This document shows, piece by piece, positions 7,993 to 46,595 of a stretch of DNA of 50,094 nucleotides. The position numbers were made by a program, and so were the translations under genes. Source of the DNA: Myxococcota bacterium (GTDB lineage Bacteria > Myxococcota_A > Polyangia > Polyangiales > Houyiibacteriaceae). Positions within the stretch are counted from its first letter, which is position 1. Every line of letters begins with the position of its first letter. The stretch is taken from contig JAHDCI010000015.1 of the NCBI GenBank assembly GCA_020629955.1, forward strand, positions 1,397 through 51,490. The letters are read 5' to 3'. A model generated the notes under the pieces. It made no database searches and was not told the origin of the DNA. It was given only the letters and a program-made list of their open reading frames with translations.

Positions 7993-8304
7993 AGGACGGG
8001 CGGCAGGTTCTATGTACGAAACCTGCACCTTCTCAGACTACGCACTTTATCGGTCGCGCGCCCGAATTGCTCGTTTCTGACGATTTGAGGGCTTTCTCCC
8101 ATCCGGCGGCCGTCCGAACCCGGCCTCTTGGCGCAAAGGAATTTCGGGCGCTCGTGACGCGGAATGCGTTTGTGGGGTTTTTGCGTTCTTGCTCGCAGGT
8201 GCTCTATGCCTTTGCTGGGCTCTCCCCGGAATGGGGCCTTCGTGAACAGCCGATTTCTTATGAATCCGAATCCTTCTGAAAAACTCTTCCGCTCGCAGCA
8301 CGAG
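7993..8304. other. divergent intergenic region between two lipoprotein genes
   Basis: 312 bp between divergently transcribed genes; it must hold promoters for both, but I see no convincing paired -35/-10 boxes or operators. In-frame starts further upstream exist for both genes but lack ribosome sites. Nothing else is seen. Confidence 0.5.
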
Positions 8305-11300
8305 ATGAAACCCGCGAAGGCGATTTCATTGGCCATTGGGTGCTTCTTGATGAGCGCCTGCGGTCCGACGCGTAGCGAACCTTCGGCGCCGCCATCGAGC
8401 GTCTCCGAAGAGCAGGCGACAACCTCGCGGGAGCAGCGGCCGGCGAGCTGCCCCGAACAAGCGGCCGCGCCCCAACTTCTACCGAACGTATCCGACGCGC
8501 ATTTCGAGCTCGCATACTGGCTCGAGCAGCAATCCGAGTACGGGGATATCGATGCACCACTCTTGAGTGTGGATGAAATCGCGGCGCAGAACCGGGCGCT
8601 TGGAGAAGGGCTCGATCCGATCCGGCAGCCTCCACTACGCGATGCGCTTCCGGAAGGTTGGCTCGCTCGGCAGCTTCGCGAACGTCTCGGTTTTGTCCGA
8701 GAACGTTTGCTCTCGGGCACCTACCTGAAGCCGGATGGGGAGCGTTTCGTTGAATCGGAACTTGGGGCCTTTTCAGAGGATGCGTTTGATGCGACGACGC
8801 CCGAACTTCGCATCGCGCTCGGAAACATCCCGGTTCGCTGCGCCCCACTCTCCGGGAGCTATGTTTCCGAGAGCCTCGACCTGGATTTTGACCGGAACAA
8901 TTGCAGCACGATTTTGCCGCAGGAGCCGCTTGAGATTTTGGGTGAAACGGCCGGCCTTCGATTGGTTCGAACTCGCTATACGCTCGGGTGGATTCGCGAG
9001 GATGCAAGCCTCAGTCGTGCATTGACTCCGGAAGAACGAACGACCTATTTCGAGGCGGAGCGAGGCCGGATTGCCGATGTTGTCGAGGTTCGAGATCTTG
9101 TGCTGAGTCCACGCGTGCCCTTACCGGTGCGCGATGGTCGAGCGCTGCTCTGGGATACCGCCGGACAACGAGAAGAGTCGCTCGCGCTCGCTCCTGCATC
9201 ACGTCCGATCACGCGCCGAGCGGTACTTGAGGAAGCCTTCCGTTACCTAGGCCATCCCTATGGTTGGGGAGGGCGAGCCGGCGAACAGGACTGCTCTCGC
9301 TTCGTCCTCGATATTCTCGGCTCGTTTAACCTTCATGTGCCGCGGCATAGCGCCCGACAGGCGCAAGCGGGGACCTTTGTTCTCGACGTGCAGGAGATGG
9401 GCCGAGACGAAAAAGTATTGGCCATGGAGAGCGCGCTAGAGCGGGGGATCGTGCTCCTTCAGTTCCCCGGACACATCATGCTCTACCTCGGAAAAGACGC
9501 TTCCGGAATCCCGATGGCGGCGCACTCTTTCAGCGAGTACCTCGTGCCTTGCGAAGGCACGGAGCTCGAGACAACTCGGCGTGCAGACCGCGTCACCATC
9601 AGTGATCTGAGCCTCGGCGAAGGGAGCTCCCGGACCGACTTTTTGAGCCGCCTGACGAAGATTGTCGTCTTCGGCAGCACGCCCGGCATTGGACTGCAGG
9701 GCGCTGCGCAGGTTCGTCCTGTTGGTGATATTTCGTATCCCGGGGAAGAAGCCGCGTGCGAAGACTCGACGGAGGTTGCGATTTTTCGAACCCCTTTTCG
9801 CCCCAATCCCCAATCGCCGATGCGTGTGATCGTGACGGCCAGCGAGGACCCGGGACCGGTTGAACTCGCGCTCTTCAATCCCGAAGGGACGCGCGTGGAT
9901 GCCGAGGTTCATCGCCTCGGCGGGCCTCCCTACTCGTACTGGGCGGAGATCGCCGAACCGACTCCGGGGAGATGGACTGCGGTGCTCGGAGATGGTCCGC
10001 GACAAGTGGCATGCGAACGCTTTGGTGTTGCTCGGCATCCTCCAGCGCATCCGCCCCGGCTCGCGGAGACGCCGGCGTGGGTACCTGTATGGTCGTGGGA
10101 AGCGGATACCGAGAATCTCTATTCCGCGTTCATTGAGCAGCTCTTTCGCGAACGGGAAGACGGGGAGCAGACGTGGAGCAACTTGCAAGAGCTCCTTTCC
10201 GATCGCTCTCGAAACCTTCTCTACAATCACCGCCTGATGGGCGAAGATGAGGCTCTCGCGCTGCGTCCCGATTGTGCGGACCTGCCGTATTTTCTGAGAG
10301 CTTATTTTGCCTGGAAGGCGCGTCTTCCCTTCGCCTGGCGACGCTGTCGACGAGGGCGCGAAGGCGTCGCTCCTGCGTGCGATGCGCGCTTTGAAAGCAA
10401 CCTGATGCCGGTCACCGCCAACAGCGATGTCGCCGCGTTTCAGCAGGTCATTCGCTCGGTGAAGCGGGCCGTTCATTCTTCCACCCAGCGAACGCCGCCC
10501 GATCAAGAATCGACCGACGTCTATCCAATCGCACTGACACGGGAGACGCTCCGGCCCGGGACGGTATTTGCAGATCCTTACGGTCATATTCTGATGATCG
10601 CCGGATATCGTGATCAGACTTTCGAAGACTACGGCGTTCTGATTGGCGCGGATGCGCAGCCCGACAACACCGTCGGACGTCGACGTTTCTGGCGCGGGTC
10701 GTTTCTATTCACTCCCGAGACCCAGGAAGCAGGCGCTGGCTTTAAGGCTTGGCGCCCGGTTTCCTACGATCGCGTCGAACAAGAGCTGGTGCTCCTCGAC
10801 AACGCGGCTCTGCGGCAGACGAATGACTTTGCTCGGTTCGACCGGCAACAATACGAAGGCACCCGCGATGACTTCTACGACGCGATGGATGCCGTCATCA
10901 ATCCCCGTCCGCTCGATCCATCCATCGTGATGCGCTCGCTCGTTTCGGCCTTCGCAGAGTCAGTGCGTCGCCGAGTGAACAGTGTCGACAATGGCGAGGG
11001 CTATATGGCCGAACATGGGTATGCGACGGTGACGATGCCCGAGGGCGCATCGATTTTTCAAACCGAGGGGGCCTGGGAGAACTTTTCGACGCCAAGCCGG
11101 GATATGCGCCTTCTGATTTCCGCGGATGCGGTCGTAGGCTTTCCTCAGCGGGTCGCTCGCAATCCCGGGCGATTCGGAGTCGATGAGAGTGCCGCAAGCG
11201 AGCGAGTTCAGCGACTTCAGGATCAGCTCAACGAGGCTCTTCGAGGGGAGACGTTTACGTACCGACGAAGCGACGGGAGCGAGGTGGAGCTGACCCTCGA

Positions 11301-11490
11301 GACTCTCGTGGGCCGACTCGACGCGATGGAGATGGCGTACAATCCCAACGATTGCCCGGAGATACGGTGGGGCGCGGATCCGGCGAGCGACGAAGGGCGA
11401 ACCTGCCGCCGTCAGGCACCGAGGGAGCAGCGAGCGCGGATGCAGTCGCTCCGGGGTTGGTTCCACACGCGTCAACGTCCCGCGCGATAG
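8305..11490 (+). CDS. lipoprotein with an SH3-like domain and two papain-like (NlpC/P60-type) centres
   Basis: 1061 residues from the ATG at 8305, chosen because it directly precedes a signal peptide with lipobox MSAC; the frame is open further upstream. A bacterial SH3-like segment (~175-235) precedes a clear NlpC/P60 peptidase (~300-420): GHPYGWGG, DCSRF with Cys330, GHIMLYLG with His390, and a later AAHSF His. A ~150-residue beta-rich segment follows. The second half has another DC motif (DCADLPYFLRAYFAW, Cys657), then TLRPGTVFADPYGHILMIAGY (His761), matching the Cys/His arrangement of the same fold. Known: NlpC/P60 enzymes cleave peptidoglycan stem peptides. Inferred: a cell-wall hydrolase anchored to a membrane; the second centre may have another substrate or be only structural. 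Stands alone, followed by a palindromic element. Confidence 0.82.
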   Translation: MKPAKAISLAIGCFLMSACGPTRSEPSAPPSSVSEEQATTSREQRPASCPEQAAAPQLLPNVSDAHFELAYWLEQQSEYGDIDAPLLSVDEIAAQNRALGEGLDPIRQPPLRDALPEGWLARQLRERLGFVRERLLSGTYLKPDGERFVESELGAFSEDAFDATTPELRIALGNIPVRCAPLSGSYVSESLDLDFDRNNCSTILPQEPLEILGETAGLRLVRTRYTLGWIREDASLSRALTPEERTTYFEAERGRIADVVEVRDLVLSPRVPLPVRDGRALLWDTAGQREESLALAPASRPITRRAVLEEAFRYLGHPYGWGGRAGEQDCSRFVLDILGSFNLHVPRHSARQAQAGTFVLDVQEMGRDEKVLAMESALERGIVLLQFPGHIMLYLGKDASGIPMAAHSFSEYLVPCEGTELETTRRADRVTISDLSLGEGSSRTDFLSRLTKIVVFGSTPGIGLQGAAQVRPVGDISYPGEEAACEDSTEVAIFRTPFRPNPQSPMRVIVTASEDPGPVELALFNPEGTRVDAEVHRLGGPPYSYWAEIAEPTPGRWTAVLGDGPRQVACERFGVARHPPAHPPRLAETPAWVPVWSWEADTENLYSAFIEQLFREREDGEQTWSNLQELLSDRSRNLLYNHRLMGEDEALALRPDCADLPYFLRAYFAWKARLPFAWRRCRRGREGVAPACDARFESNLMPVTANSDVAAFQQVIRSVKRAVHSSTQRTPPDQESTDVYPIALTRETLRPGTVFADPYGHILMIAGYRDQTFEDYGVLIGADAQPDNTVGRRRFWRGSFLFTPETQEAGAGFKAWRPVSYDRVEQELVLLDNAALRQTNDFARFDRQQYEGTRDDFYDAMDAVINPRPLDPSIVMRSLVSAFAESVRRRVNSVDNGEGYMAEHGYATVTMPEGASIFQTEGAWENFSTPSRDMRLLISADAVVGFPQRVARNPGRFGVDESAASERVQRLQDQLNEALRGETFTYRRSDGSEVELTLETLVGRLDAMEMAYNPNDCPEIRWGADPASDEGRTCRRQAPREQRARMQSLRGWFHTRQRPAR

Positions 11491-11606
11491 CGGTATTCAA
11501 CAGTGAAATCATGTGCTTACGCGCATGTGGCAAGTCGGATTGCGCGTGCGCTGACCTCGCGCCACCGGCCGAGGCTGGCAACTCCTGGATTCTTTCACGT
11601 TTCTGG

Positions 11607-11766
11607 GTCGTGGTTCAAATCGCGAGAAGGGCCCTCTTCCACCAGGAACGCCGATCCGAGCCTCGGAGAGCCGACGACATGCCGAGTATATCGGAGGAAG
11701 ACCGAAGCTCGGATCGGCGTTCGTGGCGGAAGAGGGCCCGTCTCGCGATCGGATCCCCGCACTCGA
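11607..11766. repeat. palindromic intergenic element, copy 1
   Basis: Long imperfect palindrome. The inner arms at 11620-11661 and 11707-11748 are 42 nt each with only 3 mismatches; the outer tips are CGTGGTTCAAATCG on the left and, inverted, CGAGTGCGGGGATC on the right. The loop contains ATGCCGAGTATATCGGAGG, shared with the copies at 22.3 and 45.8 kb. The gap 11491-11885 holds this and nothing else recognisable. No transposase gene inside; non-autonomous mobile element, REP-like sequence or terminator are all possible. Confidence 0.85.
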
Positions 11767-11885: not shown

Positions 11886-12776
11886 ATGGCACGAGCGAGA
11901 GCGAAAAAGGCGGCGACGCCGAAGGCCGCGCCCATTGTCGAAGAAGATTATTTCCGCAGCGATGCGGCATATCTCTGCATGATTATGAACCGGCGAACCC
12001 AGTTCGTTCGGGTGATCGATTTCCGCGCCGGACCTCTTCCTGCGAAGCGACTCTATATTCAAACCACGTGCAAAGAGCGGGGAATGAAGAAGGTCATCAC
12101 GCTCGTTGAGAAGGATGAAGTTTCGAGCTGGACGAAGCTCGGTTTTGTCCGCGAAGGGACTGTGCCAGGCTTCTACAAGCGAAGCGACGGTCACCTCTGC
12201 GGATGCGTGATCGGCGACAGTGCAGCGTCCGTGGAAGTCTCCTCCAAGGACGTGAAGGCGGCAGACCGACTCATCAACAAGGCGAAGAAACTCGCTTCGG
12301 ATGTGCCGAATGAAGTGAACGCCTCGATCTACGAACTGAACGAAGATGATGCGTTGAATATTCGCGACGAAGCGTGGGAGGCGGGCGAAGGTCTTCACGG
12401 TTTCGATCCCTTCGGACGCGATGCGGCTCGTCGCTACTACGAATCGCAATACGAAGATCATCGCCCGAATTTCATTGCGTGCGATTTTCAGGATTGCTTC
12501 GGCCATTCGATGATCGAAGTGCTCTATAGCCCGCAGAACTTCGAAGAAATTTGCTGTTTGGTCGCGGGGCTCCGTGCTGCCGGCGATGAACTGACAGAGC
12601 GCGGCATTGTCGCGGCGTTCGCATTTGGCCCGGCGGATGATCTTGAGCTCAGCGCCGCGTTCTGGGCGGCTGGCTACCGCAAGACCGGCCTCTTGGCACA
12701 GGCGATCCCGGTGAATGGCGAGCATAAGAACGCCATTCTGTGGACCCGTAAGCTCGCCAATCCTACGGATAACTAG
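11886..12776 (+). CDS. GNAT-like protein of unknown substrate
   Basis: 296 residues. The start is ATG 11886, with AAAGGAGA about 8 nt upstream; an open frame extends further 5' but has no ribosome site. Residues 1-16 are basic (Arg/Lys/Ala-rich). Residues ~55-105 carry the feature that suggests an acetyltransferase of the AblB type: KLYIQ-like strand, VEKDEVSSWTKLGFVREG and TVPGFYKRSDG, the KxGFxxEGxxPGFY pattern. A second half (~150-296) has helices and LSAAFWAAGYRKTGLL, reminiscent of a second, degenerate GNAT fold. The catalytic base is not obvious. It ends at a strong terminator, so it is probably a single-gene unit. The family call is tentative; the gene itself is secure. Confidence 0.55.
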   Translation: MARARAKKAATPKAAPIVEEDYFRSDAAYLCMIMNRRTQFVRVIDFRAGPLPAKRLYIQTTCKERGMKKVITLVEKDEVSSWTKLGFVREGTVPGFYKRSDGHLCGCVIGDSAASVEVSSKDVKAADRLINKAKKLASDVPNEVNASIYELNEDDALNIRDEAWEAGEGLHGFDPFGRDAARRYYESQYEDHRPNFIACDFQDCFGHSMIEVLYSPQNFEEICCLVAGLRAAGDELTERGIVAAFAFGPADDLELSAAFWAAGYRKTGLLAQAIPVNGEHKNAILWTRKLANPTDN

Positions 12777-21033: not shown

Positions 21034-21245
21034 TTTGCCGAGGTGGCTATGGGCGTTTCGATGGCGCATTGCAAGTGTTATTCGGGTGACCAGGTCGTCG
21101 CGTTTGAACGGGGTTTCAGACGAAGTTTGGCGCAAATTGCGATAGCGCCTTCAACGACAGGATTTGGCCATCGCGAATCTATTTCGCACTCGAGGACGTG
21201 GGCACTTGCTTGCTTTGCGTCAAAAGCTTCGGCACATTCCGGTCT

Positions 21246-22250
21246 ATGAAGCTCTCCTCTCTTACATTTCTTGCAGCGTTGTTGATGCTCGGCTGTGGCG
21301 ATGATGACCGCCCCATCGATCGCGATTCCGGCGCGGGCCCCTTCGATGCGAACACCTTGGATGTATCGCGTCCGGATGTACTTGGCTTCGACGCGCCGGA
21401 CCCGGGCAACGAATCCTGCGACAAGATGGACATCCTCTTTATCGTGGATGACTCCGGCTCGATGGGGGAAGAGCAAGCGAACTTGGCGTCCAACTTCCCA
21501 CGTTTTGTTCAGGTTTTGGACGATTTCCGGAACTCCGCAGGTCGGGAGATTGACTATCGCTTGGGCGTGACGACAACGGGCGCCGACCACGTCACGATCA
21601 TTGACTTTTCCGGCTTCGGCATTCCGCCGATGACCATCGAAGAAGAGGGACCCGCGGGAGAGCTCCAGCAAGGCTGTGGCATGACACGTAAGTGGATCGA
21701 GCGGTCGGATCCCGACGTTTCCTCCACGTTCTCGTGTGTTGCCGAAGTGGGCACCGGCGGCTCCTCGACCGAAATGCCGCTTGGCATGCTCGAACTCGCG
21801 CTCACCGAGCGAATGGCGGACGGTTCGAATGTTGGTTTCCTTCGGGATGATGCATTGCTCGCGGTGGTCATCCTCACCGACGAAGATGACTGCTCGAAGG
21901 ACGAGCGCGAGACCCGACTCACTCTCGACCCCTTTGCGCCCGGAGGCCCGGGGGGCGCTGCGGACGAATGCTCTGGAGATAGCTTGATTCCGATTTCGCG
22001 CGTGTTGGCCACCGTCGACGCTGCGAAGATGGAACGGGGGCGATGGGCCGCGGCGGTCATCGCGGGACCGACGGACTGCGAGAGCGCGTTTGGCTCGGCG
22101 GCGAGCGCCGACCGATTGCAGGACTTCGTTTCCCAGGTTGGGGATAACGCGACGTTCAGTTCCATTTGTGAAGGTGACTTGAGCTCCGCGTTGATGGATG
22201 CACTCAACACGTTTGAAGTCGCCTGTCAGAGCTTCCCGCCCCTCATCTGA
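21246..22250 (+). CDS. von Willebrand factor A domain lipoprotein
   Basis: 334 residues from the ATG at 21246, which gives a signal peptide and lipobox MLGC (Cys17). A short Asp-rich linker (~18-55) precedes a vWA domain (~60-320) opening with MDILFIVDDSGSMGEE; D68-x-S70-x-S72 is the metal-binding (MIDAS) motif. LLAVVILTDEDDCSKDE is the later acidic MIDAS segment. Paired cysteines through the domain suggest disulfides, consistent with the periplasm or cell surface. Known: vWA domains bind protein ligands through a metal ion; in Myxococcota such lipoproteins are numerous and mostly uncharacterised. Divergent from the RND pump operon. Followed by palindromic element copy 2 and a terminator. Confidence 0.88.
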   Translation: MKLSSLTFLAALLMLGCGDDDRPIDRDSGAGPFDANTLDVSRPDVLGFDAPDPGNESCDKMDILFIVDDSGSMGEEQANLASNFPRFVQVLDDFRNSAGREIDYRLGVTTTGADHVTIIDFSGFGIPPMTIEEEGPAGELQQGCGMTRKWIERSDPDVSSTFSCVAEVGTGGSSTEMPLGMLELALTERMADGSNVGFLRDDALLAVVILTDEDDCSKDERETRLTLDPFAPGGPGGAADECSGDSLIPISRVLATVDAAKMERGRWAAAVIAGPTDCESAFGSAASADRLQDFVSQVGDNATFSSICEGDLSSALMDALNTFEVACQSFPPLI

Positions 22251-22268: not shown

Positions 22269-22454
22269 TTCGAGTGCGGGGATCAAATCGATAGAAGGGA
22301 TGATCTTTCGTCAGGGGCGGCGAGGCGAGTTTCGGAGGGCGGACGCCATGCCGAGTATATCGAAGGAAGAGCGAAGCTCGGATCGGCCCTCCTGACGGAC
22401 GAGGGCCCATCTACCGATTTGAATCACGCACTAGCGATTTGAACCACGCACTAG
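22269..22454. repeat. palindromic intergenic element, copy 2
   Basis: Left tip AGTGCGGGGATCAAATCG; right tip, inverted, AGTGCGTGGTTCAAATCG. The loop ATGCCGAGTATATCGAAGG and the following GCTCGGATCGGC match copies 1 and 3. Inner arms are less perfect than in copy 1. The right tip is doubled in tandem (20-bp units at 22415-22434 and 22435-22454, one mismatch). Lies between convergent genes. Confidence 0.83.
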
Positions 22455-22617: not shown

Positions 22618-23169
22618 CTAGGCTTCGCCCTCGCTCGGCTTGTTCACCCAGTACGGGCTTCCCATCAACTCGCTGCGAACCTGCACCTTATGCATCTCGC
22701 TGAGCTCGGCGGTTTGTGGCTGCCCCGTGTTCGGGTTGATTTGCGTCAAAAACCAGCGCTGATCTGTTAAATGCTCATGGATCATGATGCCGCGCGGATC
22801 GTCGTAGATCACCTGCAGATCTTCTGGAGTGACCGGTCCAGGGGTTGGGGCCTGCGGCTCTTCCGCAGGTTCGGGTTCTGGCTCAGGTTCCGGTGCAGGT
22901 GGAGCAACGGGCTCGGGTGCCTCTGGTGCTGTCGATTCGAGAACCTCGTCGAGCGTCCATTGAAAATCAAGACGCTCTTTTCGCGCTGCTTCCGTCAGAA
23001 GTTCGCGGGAAATAGAGGAAAGATCACCCGTGAGAAGGGTTGTGAGAGCGGTCGTCAGCGCGGGCCAGTGGGCCTCATCGTGCCTCGCGGCGCGCAGTAG
23101 GCTCGCGATATAGTCTTTGACCTCGCCCTCGTTGGTTGGGGCGGCGATCGCATTGATTTCCGTAGTCAT
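22618..23169 (-). CDS. hypothetical protein with a Pro/Glu-rich linker
   Basis: 183 residues from the ATG at 23169, preceded by CAGGA at about 5 nt; a longer open frame to 23250 lacks support. I do not recognise the family. Residues ~1-80 are helical and acidic (VKDYIASLLRAARHDEAHW, LTTALTTLLTGDL). Residues ~90-120 alternate Pro and Glu, an extended spacer. Residues ~125-183 form a small beta-rich unit: IYDDPRGIMIHEHLTDQRW, INPNTGQPQTAELSEMH and LMGSPYWVNK. No signal peptide or membrane segment, so it is cytoplasmic. Single-gene unit with its own terminator. Confidence 0.8.
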   Translation of the reverse strand: MTTEINAIAAPTNEGEVKDYIASLLRAARHDEAHWPALTTALTTLLTGDLSSISRELLTEAARKERLDFQWTLDEVLESTAPEAPEPVAPPAPEPEPEPEPAEEPQAPTPGPVTPEDLQVIYDDPRGIMIHEHLTDQRWFLTQINPNTGQPQTAELSEMHKVQVRSELMGSPYWVNKPSEGEA

Positions 23170-23421
23170 GGGTGTCCTGATACGTCGTCGCTCCGGCCTC
23201 GGCAAGTATTGGATGGAGGTGGATGCGTTGTGGTGATTGGGGATTTCCAAGTGGAATGATTCGATCTGATGGGATCTCCCTACACTGGTCTAGTTTTCCC
23301 CACGGATCCGAAAGGCGGATCACGAGGAAATTTAATTACCAGGGTTGGCACGAATCGCGCTATACGCCTTACCAAGTCTACGTCGCCGTGGAGCGACCTG
23401 AACTAAGGAGCTATCGAGGAT

Positions 23422-43885: not shown

Positions 43886-45322
43886 ATGAGTTTCGCTCCG
43901 CCGGTTGAAATCGCCCGTTTCCTCTTTTCTCGAGGATCTCGCTGGGAAGCTGCGCTCATCCTACGGGCAACGAGTAAGCGAAATCCGGAGGACGCGAGCG
44001 CGCGTGGCGTGCTTCAAACGATTGAACGAACCCACGAGTTTCCGCCTGGGGTCGCTTCGGAGCCATCGATTCCGTTGGTGGATCGCTGGATACGCGACGG
44101 GATGCTCGTTGAAGCTCTAGCTGTCCTCGGCGGCTTCGAGCTTGGTGGACCGGCGGAGGAATGGGCCTCTCTGCTCGGTGAGTTGCTCGCGCCCGTTCCG
44201 GCACACGCGGGGGAAGTCTTTGTCACGGCACACGCGGCCCTACTTGCGGGTGCTGCGCCGATCGCGCTGGCGACGCTGACCGATATCGAGTCCGCCCAGA
44301 GCCTCCCGACGTGGGCCCAGCGCCGCCTCGAACTGCTTCGGTGGATGTTGCTCGACAATGCCGAGGAAGCGCCCGAACTTGCGGTGGAAGCCTCCACGCA
44401 TTGGCTCGCGGCGGCGATGAAAGAGCCACTCGGTCAGCGAAGCATCGAAGGGGCGCTTCGGGAAGCTCGGGCATGTGCGAATCGAGCACCGGGCGATGCG
44501 GACGCGGTCGAGCTTGCCCGCCTTCTCGACGTCCTCGTTCGAGAGATGAACCATCACGTGGCTGATGTGCTCACGAGCATGAAGACAGTGCCCGTATATG
44601 GACGGCCCGCCGCCGCGATGCAGCTTCAGATGGCGAACTTCAAGGGCGCTCGCGAGATCTACGCTCAGCAGTTGAAGAACCGATCGGGAGATCGAGAGCT
44701 GCGCGAGCTGCTCGACGCGGTGAAAGGCGTGGAGAGGGTTCTCGAAGGAAGGGCGATCGTCGACAAACGTTTCGCGAAACCGATCGATCGACCTCCACCT
44801 CCTGTTTATCGGGCGCCTCCCGCGGTCTATCGAACGCCACCTTCTGTTCCTCCAGAGGGCGCAGACCTCAGCGAGACGTGGCAGGATGAAACCCGCGCTG
44901 CGAACTCAGGAGAGCTGCCGCTGCAGGCGTTTTCCGATGATGTCACCGCGTCGCATTCGATTCCGCGACCTGCTCCGAGCATGCCGACGGGGGATTTGCC
45001 CGTGGTGAAGGTTCGGGCTCCGGAGCCTTCTTTTTCGGATGTCACGCTCGCCTCAAGTCAATCCGCCAAGCTCGCTGACGAGGATTTGGGTTCCGTCTTC
45101 GAAGAGCTTCATCACGAAGCCGGCGTTGAATCGATGGATGACGTCACATCGGTTGGCGCGCCTCCTTCGGCGCCTGAACCCGAGCGGTCGGCATCCGAGA
45201 CGACCGATGTCGAAGTCGTGCTCCCCGGCGCGGACTCGCCGGAAGAGAGGGTTCAGCACGATGATAAAACCGACGTCGTTATTCTTCGAGCACAACTCAT
45301 AGGAGACGTTTCCGATGACTGA
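43886..45322 (+). CDS. helical-repeat protein with a long disordered C-terminus
   Basis: 478 residues; ATG 43886, no ribosome site. Residues 1-280 are helical and look TPR-like (EIARFLFSRGSRWEAALILRATSKRNPEDASA, LVDRWIRDGMLVEALAVL), with WAQRRLELLRWMLLDNAEEAPELAVEA in the middle. Residues ~290-478 are Pro-, Ser- and acid-rich, with PPPPVYRAPPAVYRTPP and SDDVTASHSI-type runs, so mostly disordered and plausible kinase targets. No signal peptide. It overlaps the receiver gene by 8 bp and lies 150 bp after the kinase gene. I do not recognise a named family; a signalling scaffold is an inference from context. Confidence 0.8.
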   Translation: MSFAPPVEIARFLFSRGSRWEAALILRATSKRNPEDASARGVLQTIERTHEFPPGVASEPSIPLVDRWIRDGMLVEALAVLGGFELGGPAEEWASLLGELLAPVPAHAGEVFVTAHAALLAGAAPIALATLTDIESAQSLPTWAQRRLELLRWMLLDNAEEAPELAVEASTHWLAAAMKEPLGQRSIEGALREARACANRAPGDADAVELARLLDVLVREMNHHVADVLTSMKTVPVYGRPAAAMQLQMANFKGAREIYAQQLKNRSGDRELRELLDAVKGVERVLEGRAIVDKRFAKPIDRPPPPVYRAPPAVYRTPPSVPPEGADLSETWQDETRAANSGELPLQAFSDDVTASHSIPRPAPSMPTGDLPVVKVRAPEPSFSDVTLASSQSAKLADEDLGSVFEELHHEAGVESMDDVTSVGAPPSAPEPERSASETTDVEVVLPGADSPEERVQHDDKTDVVILRAQLIGDVSDD

Positions 45323-45788
45323 GGCGAGTGGTCCTGGTTGGACATTTCCTCCCCGTCCGGATTCGGATGGCCGCGCGGTGGTTCTTTACGTCGACGTCGA
45401 TGATCAGAGCTGGGACGTTGCTAGTGAAGGCTTACGCCGAGGTTATCGCTTGCTGCGCGCACGAGGTGATCGCGAAGCGTGCGCGTTGATTCGCCAGTAC
45501 GCGGAAGATCTCGTTGCCGTCATGCTCGATGTCGATCTCCCCGGCTCCGTGCTCGATGGAATCTTGCTAACTCGGATCTTGCGCGGACGCGTACCGGCTC
45601 AGGCGATGCCTCCTTTTGCGAGGGACCTGCCCGCGATCGACGCCCCGATTCTACTCGTGACCGGATCGCCCGATGACTACTCCGAGAGCGAGGTGCTTCG
45701 CTATGGAGGGGACCGCCTTTTGCTGAAGCCTCTCCGCTTGGCGCGGGTGACGATGGCCGTCACCGATTGGCACCTCGCGCGAAGCTAG
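45315..45788 (+). CDS. single-domain response-regulator receiver protein
   Basis: 157 residues, all receiver domain with a ~20-residue N-terminal extension. The acidic pair Asp29-Asp30 (LYVDVDD), phosphoacceptor Asp72 in AVMLDVDLPG, Thr116 in LLVTGSP and Lys138 in LLLKPL complete the conserved site. An insertion near 90-105 (RGRVPAQAMPPFARDLPA) is longer than usual. No output domain, so it likely acts as a phosphate sink or binds a partner. The start lies 8 bp inside the upstream gene. The stop codon TAG is also the outermost three bases of palindromic element copy 3. Confidence 0.85.
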   Translation: MTEASGPGWTFPPRPDSDGRAVVLYVDVDDQSWDVASEGLRRGYRLLRARGDREACALIRQYAEDLVAVMLDVDLPGSVLDGILLTRILRGRVPAQAMPPFARDLPAIDAPILLVTGSPDDYSESEVLRYGGDRLLLKPLRLARVTMAVTDWHLARS

Positions 45789-45950
45789 CGCGTGGATCGT
45801 ATCGATGGGAGGGAAGTTCTTTCGCCAGGGGCGCCGAGGCGAGCTTCGAAAGGCGAACGAAATGCCGAGAATATTGAAAGAAGAGCGAAAAACTCGGATC
45901 GGCGTCCCTAGCGCGCCCTTCTAGCAGCAATCGATTTGAACCACGCGCTA
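45786..45950. repeat. palindromic intergenic element, copy 3
   Basis: 165 bp filling the whole gap between two convergent genes. Terminal inverted repeats of 21 bp (45786-45806 and 45930-45950) differ at three positions; the tip is TAGCGCGTGG. The loop AATGCCGAGAATATTGAAAG and a following ACTCGGATCGGCG match copies 1 and 2. Each tip's TAG is the stop codon of the gene on that side. Confidence 0.87.
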
Positions 45951-46595
45951 AGGAAGTGGCAGCCGGAGTGTTTCGTGAATCGGGCCGACAGGTTCGATGG
46001 ATCGCTCTTGGGTCGCGGCCAGGCCTACGCCTACGCCGGCGCCGACGACCACCACCGCGATGATCGTCCAGAACCACCATTTCGACGCGATGCCGGAATC
46101 CTCCTCGTTGACGGAATCGGCGGGCCGATTGCTTTCGCTCGCCTGGCCTCCGGCCGCTGCAACGCTCTCGGGGCGGACGTCCACTTGCCCGGATTCTGCC
46201 TGCCCGGATTCCGCTTCGGCGACGGAACGCTCCAGGATTTCAATTCTGCGTTCCGCGTCATTTCGGTTTGGCGCATCGGGCAGAGCCTCGAGGAAGGCAC
46301 GGTAGGCATTGAGAGCTTCTTGGTCGTTGCGAAGCCGGTCGTTCGCGACCCCGATATTAAAGAGCAACTCGGGTCTCCCGCTCAGCTCGTGAGAACGTGA
46401 GAAGTGGGTCAGCGCCTCCTCGTATCGGCCGTCGGATAAGGCCCGCTCACCGATCTGAAAATGCAGCCTCGCCTCCTCGTCGCGGGAGCCCTCCGCCGCT
46501 TCGGGAGAGCCCTCGGGAGCGTCCGCATTTTGCGCGAGGGCGCTGGAGCTCGTCGTCAAAAGTGCGAGGAATGATATCGAAAGGAAGGTCTTCAT
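45948..46595 (-). CDS. TPR protein with signal peptide and C-terminal membrane helix
   Basis: 215 residues. Signal peptide 1-21 (ALA-QN). TPR region ~40-115: ARLHFQIGERALSDGRYEEALTHFSRSHELS and ELLFNIGVANDRLRNDQEALNAYRAFLEALP, about two to three repeats. A polar linker with a GQAESGQ repeat follows, then a membrane helix at ~172-192 and a short tail ending at TAG, which belongs to palindromic element copy 3. Inferred: a periplasmic TPR scaffold anchored in the inner membrane, of a kind frequent in Myxococcota. The start overlaps the stop of the upstream GLUG lipoprotein gene by 4 bp (ATGA), so the two probably work together. Confidence 0.87.
   Translation of the reverse strand: MKTFLSISFLALLTTSSSALAQNADAPEGSPEAAEGSRDEEARLHFQIGERALSDGRYEEALTHFSRSHELSGRPELLFNIGVANDRLRNDQEALNAYRAFLEALPDAPNRNDAERRIEILERSVAEAESGQAESGQVDVRPESVAAAGGQASESNRPADSVNEEDSGIASKWWFWTIIAVVVVGAGVGVGLAATQERSIEPVGPIHETLRLPLP

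What the first reader, a model, noticed from the sequence alone, without database searches (positions are those of the whole stretch)
11607..11766. Family of palindromic intergenic elements with shared tips and loop (three copies)
Three 160-186 bp palindromes (11607-11766, 22269-22454, 45786-45950) share tips near GTGCGTGGTTCAAATCG and an asymmetric loop with ATGCCGAG-TATAT-CG and CTCGGATCGGC. All are in gene gaps, two of them between convergent genes. They contain no gene; short open frames inside (reading MPSISKEERSSD or similar) come from the repeat. This looks like an undescribed REP/MITE-like family.
Basis: seen in the sequence. Interest (0 to 1): 0.78.

Follow-up and report, generated by a model that had tools for sequence, protein, structure and literature searches.

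The report
Stop-codon-targeting mini-transposon with conserved hairpin core
A family of ~165-bp palindromic DNA repeats, with at least 128 copies in this myxobacterial genome and relatives in sister genera, sits outside genes and often exactly on TAG stop codons; it is likely a mini-transposon moved by an IS630-type transposase, and in the sister genera its centre is conserved where its arms are not.

Summary
The three palindromes (11603-11765, 22271-22434, 45785-45951) belong to a 164-bp family with 128 distinct copies in the fetched 452 kb of the parent genome, 92 full length. Related families occur in other genera of the same taxonomic family. [quoted passage not shown] The element runs GTGC...GCAC, flanked by TA inside CTAG. 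Two of three aligned sites in a sister genome are empty and carry one CTAG, a native TAG stop codon. IS630-type insertion sequences in sister genomes have matching ends. Starting with G and ending with C, the element rebuilds CTAG on both sides, so a gene ending there keeps its stop; 30 of 92 full copies sit this way. Unusually for a MITE, an apical core of about 46 bp is conserved between genera while arms and tips change, and spreading copies favour G.T over A.C pairs on one strand, as if a single-stranded fold is selected. No IS630 transposase was found in the parent genome, and tips in two genera do not match the known IS ends.

The parts
11603..11765 (+). Copy 1 of the element (core strand = +), between tandem genes 8164-11490 (+) and 11886-12776 (+); feet CTGG / CTCG (both TA lost)
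   Evidence: profile hit 132.9 bits, coordinates checked, fold z -11.0
11676..11704 (+). Loop core of copy 1 (GACATGCCGAGTATATCGGAGGAAGACCG)
   Evidence: core pattern, 2 mismatches
22271..22434 (+). Copy 2, between convergent genes 21198-22250 (+) and 22618-23250 (-); feet CGAG / CTAG
   Evidence: profile hit 170.1 bits, fold z -3.8
22345..22373 (+). Loop core of copy 2 (GCCATGCCGAGTATATCGAAGGAAGAGCG)
   Evidence: core pattern, 1 mismatch
22435..22454 (+). Extra tandem copy of the 20-bp right tip (CGATTTGAACCACGCACTAG)
45785..45951 (+). Copy 3, between convergent genes 45315-45788 (+) and 45948-46595 (-); feet CTAG / CTAA
   Evidence: profile hit 133.3 bits, fold z -4.1
45859..45887 (+). Loop core of copy 3 (GAAATGCCGAGAATATTGAAAGAAGAGCG)
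   Evidence: sequence
45786..45788 (+). TAG stop codon of the + gene, formed by the left foot of copy 3
45948..45950 (-). TAG stop codon of the - gene, formed by the right foot of copy 3

Best explanation
The three palindromes are likely copies of a non-autonomous mini-transposon (MITE) moved in trans by an IS630/Tc1-mariner-type transposase, which is inferred to insert it at the TA of CTAG sites and duplicate that TA. The element proper is GTGC...GCAC (about 160 bp). Its first G and last C, with the duplicated TA, rebuild CTAG at both ends, so a gene whose TAG stop is the target keeps its stop and its protein, from either strand. CTAG is rarer inside genes than between them here, and insertions inside genes would be purged, so copies collect at stop codons and in 3' gaps. 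Shown by calls: the copies, the CTAG feet, two sites in a sister genome with one CTAG that is a native stop, and IS630-type ISs with like ends in sister genomes. Inferred: movement in trans, and that the source transposase has been lost from, or is missing in the assembly of, the parent genome. Also inferred: the strand carrying the ATGCCGA core must fold as a single strand, most simply as RNA, for a copy to propagate; what reads this fold is unknown.
For: 261 tip matches against 2 in the control; 128 copies, 92 full length. Two of three aligned G014 sites have a single CTAG where G008 has CTAG-element-CTAG, each a native TAG stop of an open frame of 302-541 codons. Where TA is intact, the base outside varies in 23 of 112 feet and the inner G/C in 8 of 112 (p 0.006). 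DDE_3 ISs of 1048-1076 bp in G014, G007 and G015 with ends CTAGAGCGTGATCCASGTCG or CTAGAGCACGATCCAGGAGCGGC; tips of 4 of 8 G015 copies match at 18-19 of 22 bases, 9 of 23 G008 copies at 17-18, both G014 copies at 15-17, four tested G000 copies at 12-17. 0 of 92 copies inside genes against 97 of 195 CTAG sites outside copies. G.T exceeds A.C between the arms, 33 to 6 over six lineages after my grouping and rounding; the core strand folds better in 134 of 137 copies.
Against: No DDE_3 domain in the parent genome (82% complete), nor in G008, G003 and G005, though G008 and G003 have many near-identical, so recent, copies. Tips of G003 (5 copies) and G005 (2) match the known IS ends no better than shuffles; those of G007 (4) and G026 (1) only weakly. 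Empty sites were seen for G008, none for the window's own family. Only 27 of 92 G000 copies have TA at both feet. The excess at stops over other non-genic CTAG sites is modest (p 0.008 binomial, 0.058 Fisher). G.T against A.C is 3 to 3 in G026 and weak in G003. IS5-type transposases (PF01609), some of which are recalled to use similar targets, were not searched.
Confidence: 0.85

Rival explanations
1. REP/IS200-IS605-type element: a Y1 (HUH) enzyme moves the folded single strand; the left CTAG is the target tetranucleotide and the right CTAG is the element's own end.
For: Strand-specific fold with G.T but few A.C pairs; CTAG at both feet; one CTAG at the two empty sites would fit as well.
Against: No Y1_Tnp in the parent genome (other genomes not searched). 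The base outside the right TA varies like the one outside the left TA (11 of 55 and 12 of 57), which fits a duplicated TA. IS630-type ISs with like ends exist.
Confidence: 0.07
2. Transcription terminators or mRNA 3'-end hairpins kept by the host: a long hairpin between convergent genes or at stop codons would end or protect transcripts.
For: Enrichment between convergent genes (30 of 76 against 53 of 234 gene pairs, p 0.004) and at stop codons (30 of 92); very stable hairpins.
Against: No bias of the better-folding strand relative to tandem genes (18 same, 24 opposite). No run of T after the hairpin in the consensus feet. Changes in G000 copies look nearly neutral for pairing (188 G.U to 144 A.C; 150 to 138 without two columns, dropped after seeing the data). 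Copies are near identical within G008 and G003 but placed at unrelated genes, as a mobile repeat would be.
Confidence: 0.05
3. Retro-element: RNA of the core strand is reverse-transcribed and inserted.
For: Selection for a fold of one strand in spreading copies; conserved structured core.
Against: No RVT_1 domain in G003 and G007, both copy-bearing and 94-96% complete; TA-type feet and IS630-like ends.
Confidence: 0.03

Closest known systems
RUP of Streptococcus pneumoniae (107 bp, proposed to be mobilised by IS630-Spn1)
   Same: About a hundred copies, inverted ends like those of an IS630-family IS, TA at the target (PMC2229807 and PMC3049150, passages)
   Different: Here 164 bp and GC-rich; CTAG target that rebuilds stop codons; a core conserved between genera while ends vary; one-strand pairing bias
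ERIC/IRU of enterobacteria and Correia/NEMIS of Neisseria
   Same: Palindromic, 107-155 bp, TA at termini with target duplication, folded transcripts (PMC2229807, passages)
   Different: No sequence relation was tested; host taxon, core and CTAG/stop-codon habit differ
IS630 and ISY100 (Tc1/mariner/IS630 family)
   Same: TA target duplicated (PMC2170065, passages); preference for TA in CTAG for IS630 (Tenzen and Ohtsubo 1991, seen only as a title in that reference list)
   Different: Those are autonomous; this element has no gene
REP elements and RAYT enzymes
   Same: High-copy extragenic palindromes with a tetranucleotide foot (recalled)
   Different: Several times longer (recalled), no Y1 domain in the parent genome, TA duplication inferred

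Membership tests
IS630-type MITE | Short, gene-free, many copies | tested here: met
   128 copies, mostly 142-170 bp, in 452 kb fetched
IS630-type MITE | Terminal inverted repeats | tested here: met
   arms of about 70 nt, 50 identical positions of 71 in the consensus arm alignment
IS630-type MITE | TA target-site duplication | tested here: met
   two of three aligned sites empty with one CTAG in G014, foot statistics; for G008 directly, for G000 only by feet
IS630-type MITE | Ends shared with an IS630-family IS | tested here: met
   G015, G014 and G008 tips 15-19 of 22 in the better-matching copies, G000 12-17; not met for G003 and G005
IS630-type MITE | Matching transposase in the same genome | tested here: not met
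   no DDE_3 in G000, G008, G003, G005; met in G015, G014, G007. A MITE can outlive its source, so this lowers certainty without excluding membership
IS630-type MITE | Moved by that transposase | not testable with these tools
   needs a movement assay
REP element (RAYT-mobilised) | Y1 transposase of the RAYT kind in the genome | tested here: not met
   no Y1_Tnp in the parent genome; relatives not searched
REP element (RAYT-mobilised) | No target duplication | tested here: inconclusive
   feet favour a TA duplication (p 0.006); the two empty sites fit both models
ERIC / Correia-NEMIS | Sequence relation to the ERIC or Correia consensus | not tested
Known structured RNA (Rfam) | Match to an Rfam model at its threshold | tested here: not met
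   7 loci; one sub-threshold match (PYLIS_2, 25.5 bits against 36) just before the L013 copy

The most novel reading that the evidence does not exclude
A MITE superfamily with inverted logic: its two ends drift in step with each other, while a structured core (a six-pair hairpin with paired changes, set in a conserved asymmetric loop, possibly descended from the ribosome-binding and start region of the IS630 transposase gene) is what spreading copies must keep, read as a single strand. It would be an RNA- or single-strand-licensed transposon that writes itself into TAG stop codons without changing any protein.
Probability: 0.3. Interest if true: 0.78.

Novelty: new variant of a known kind. Interest (0 to 1): 0.58.

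Why it matters
It gives a concrete DNA rule for how a small transposon can insert on stop codons without changing a protein: target CTAG, duplicate TA, begin with G and end with C. It also offers a many-copy, multi-genus system in which selection for a single-stranded fold in a DNA mini-transposon can be measured, because G.T and A.C mismatches between the arms should arise equally without it. If the core is a functional RNA or single-strand signal, it bears on how bacterial MITEs multiply, which is poorly understood.

Tried and rejected
Coding role of the internal ATG: rejected, the frame differs between G000 and G008 (sequences). Known RNA family: none at threshold. Autonomous copy inside the parent genome: not seen; the tool listed 100 of 261 tip hits, which with the 87 core hits form 125 clusters; of 13 odd tip sites inspected most are copies cut by a contig end or internally deleted, one (C77) is a lone tip with no partner in the 330 bases shown, and I saw no gene-bearing version. 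Five unpaired tips in G008 (L175, L176, L179-L181): no partner end of more than 15 of 24 in 6 kb. Reverse transcriptase: absent in two copy-bearing genomes. Viral contigs: 0 matches to the core. G000 loop in genome contigs: 0, but records of the window's own genome may be left out there. RNAalifold on a cross-genus alignment gave no useful consensus. IS inner ends against element middles: 2 of 60 comparisons passed my rule, about chance, neither being the left leader; the 13-bp exact match GTGAGGGGATGGC between the G007 IS leader and cores in G003, G026 and one G008 copy (BLAST) is therefore only a lead. Four short hits of the G000 consensus in G014, G007, G024 and G004 (E 3e-4 to 1e-3) were not counted as copies.

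Rows dropped: 36 of 128 copies are partial or at contig ends and were left out of gene and pairing counts; two more of the 92 were left out of the flank listing (90 shown). 45 copies from other genomes were kept by a boundary rule; 9 of these lack a TA foot at either end because the tip was misplaced or missing and stay in the counts. Copies present only among the 161 unlisted tip hits were not fetched, so the copy number is a lower bound.

Full report
What is there. Three imperfect palindromes lie at 11603-11765, 22271-22434 and 45785-45951. Each folds better than dinucleotide shuffles. The parent genome (G000; 5.6 Mb, 355 contigs, 82% complete) is a myxobacterium near Polyangiales/Sandaracinaceae, judged only by names on protein hits of at most 51% identity. 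It holds 261 matches to the tip pattern against 2 for the reversed control, and 87 matches to the loop pattern against 0. A profile over 452 kb of fetched sequence finds 128 distinct copies, 92 full length. Full copies are 77-96% identical to the consensus (median 90%), mean pairwise 83%, so most are not recent.

Anatomy. Consensus, core strand: CTA-GTGCGGGGATCA...GACATGCCGAGTATATCGAAGGAAGAG...TTGAACCACGCAC-TAG, with arms of about 70 nt. Feet are CTAG on the left in 41 of 92 and on the right in 40 of 92 full copies; TA is intact on both sides in 27 of 92. Internally deleted derivatives that keep both tips exist. Three copies, copy 2 of the window among them, carry an extra 20-bp tip beyond the right end.

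Where copies sit. Neighbours are convergent in 30, tandem in 42 and divergent in 4 of the 76 copies with both neighbours called; adjacent gene pairs in the same sequence, those around copies included, are 53, 149 and 32 of 234 (p 0.004 for convergent, 0.03 for divergent). In 30 of 92 copies a neighbour's TAG stop codon is exactly the element's foot, in 3 on both sides; copy 3 of the window is one of the three. CTAG outside copies occurs 97 times in 345 kb of genes, 77 times in 86 kb between genes and 21 times as a stop codon. The avoidance of genes is overwhelming; the excess at stops over other non-genic CTAG sites is modest (p 0.008 binomial, 0.058 Fisher).

Relatives. The G000 element itself was not found in 56 relatives, four short marginal hits apart. 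A tip search in 183 genomes of the order showed paired ends 166 bp apart in G008, another genus of the same family. Its element shares the tip style and an ATGCCGA-GTAT core with G000, but not the arms. That element in turn finds matches in 8 of 33 family genomes: G008, G003, G005, G007, G014, G015, G026 and G000, the last by a 32-base tip only. G013 has three ends of a further kind and at least one palindrome between them. A 46-bp core (GTCCGCGAACCGAGGAAATGCCGAAGYATTTTCGAGCGTGAGGGGA) is about 96% identical between G008 and G003, whose arms are unrelated. Among one genome each for 84,980 species, a core pattern hits 68 stretches, all from three MAGs: JAEPMI (HCUG1432-5), JANQQS (IP29b_bin.34) and JALOQC (Prado145); shared 120-base words and contig lengths show these to be G008, G003 and, for 3 of 6 loci tested, G015. 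The pattern would miss the G000 type. Viral contigs: 0.

How it inserts. Three orthologous sites in G014 were aligned to G008 insertions. In two (L222/L255, L169/L260) G014 has one CTAG where G008 has CTAG-element-CTAG, and in both that CTAG is the native TAG stop of a long open frame (302-541 codons), with a conserved end (WKTVEV*/WKTVRV*) in the second. The third is uninformative. Where TA is intact in G000 feet, the base outside varies in 23 of 112 cases and the inner G or C in 8 of 112 (p 0.006). Copies in G008 and G015 also show ATA.., GTA.. and ..TAT feet. So TA is most likely duplicated and the element is GTGC...GCAC. Its terminal G and C rebuild CTAG on both sides, which is why stops survive; this last step follows from the sequence.

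What moves it. A duplicated TA target is the habit of IS630-family transposases (PMC2170065, passages; a preference for CTAG is seen there only as the title of a cited paper). The parent genome has no DDE_3 domain; nor do G008, G003 and G005. G014, G007 and G015 do, at 8 places. Three of these ISs (1048, 1051 and 1076 bp) have left ends CTAGAGCGTGATCCACGTCGG, CTAGAGCGTGATCCAGGTCG and CTAGAGCACGATCCAGGAGCGGC, and two further loci in G007 carry the same right end; Pfam confirms DDE_3 in the three. One IS in G014 (L344) has other ends, and two hits there are fragments. Against these ends, element tips match over 22 bases as follows: G015, 4 of 8 copies at 18-19; G014, both at 15-17; G008, 9 of 23 at 17-18, 2 at about 16, 8 at 13-15, 4 lower, three of these with misplaced tips; G000, four tested, 12-17; G007 and G026 weak; G003 and G005 at the null. 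I infer movement in trans by such a transposase, with tip subfamilies following different transposases; for the window's own genus the partner is lost or unassembled.

What is odd. An ordinary MITE keeps its ends and lets its middle drift. Here the middle is kept between genera. The apical hairpin changes in a paired way (AAATGC/GCATTT, AGATGC/GCATCT, AAATAC/GTATTT, AATAGC/GCTATT); 37 of 45 copies from other genomes have at least five pairs there by my rule and 8 do not. Aligning the two arms with a symmetric score, G.T exceeds A.C on the core strand: 7 to 0 in the G000 consensus; means 7.8 to 0.3 in G008, 9.5 to 0.4 in G015, 7 to 1.5 in G014, 7 to 0.5 in G005, 4.8 to 2.0 in G007, 3.0 to 1.6 in G003, and 3 to 3 in G026. 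Taking G008, G014 and G015 as one lineage and rounding, this is 33 to 6 over six groups, p 1.4e-5; grouping and rounding are mine. The core strand folds better than its complement in 134 of 137 copies. One-sided changes within G000 copies are 188 to 144 (p 0.018), or 150 to 138 without two columns, an exclusion made after seeing the data. So the bias is mainly in what the spreading copies share, little in drift afterwards. The element strand shows no bias relative to tandem genes (18 same, 24 opposite). This points to a single-stranded fold needed during propagation rather than a host use of the transcript. RNA is the simplest candidate; folded single-stranded DNA is not excluded.

Judgement. 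As a kind this is an IS630-type MITE, comparable to RUP (PMC2229807, PMC3049150, passages). The conserved structured core, the one-strand pairing bias and the stop-rebuilding ends make it an unusual variant. The listings of the paper searches showed no description of it.

Noticed in passing
L003:~90, L041 (C193), L118 (C141), L123 (C178), L124 (C184), L106 (C104), L143 (C264), L147 (C302) in the parent genome: A second repeat whose ends read TTTTTCACCAGCCTG (10 matches in 452 kb); in C141 it is inserted within a copy of the element, and in C193, C178 and C184 the element lies right beside its end.
   Followed up: partly
L234 and L235 (G008): Two G008 copies carry nearly the same insert of about 80 bp, itself hairpin-like by eye, within the conserved core at the same place, so an element with a longer apex seems to have spread.
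   Followed up: no
L184-L186 (G013): A further palindrome family with ends TAGAGCGTGAGGCACATTG / AAAGTGCCTCATGCTCTA and a different loop, probably another branch of the superfamily.
   Followed up: no
window 22435-22454; also C110 and C264 in the parent genome: Extra tandem copies of the 20-bp tip directly beyond the right end of three copies; slippage or remains of a nested insertion.
   Followed up: no
L342, L341, L340: The IS630-type transposase genes appear to be read in two overlapping frames, a helix-turn-helix part and a DDE part, as in frameshifting IS630 members (by eye; the type is recalled).
   Followed up: no
window 8164-11490; 45315-45788; 45948-46595: Genes beside the copies: a protein with an NlpC/P60 domain, a weak response-regulator receiver match (below the family cut-off) and a TPR protein; three further neighbours have no Pfam match.
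   Followed up: no
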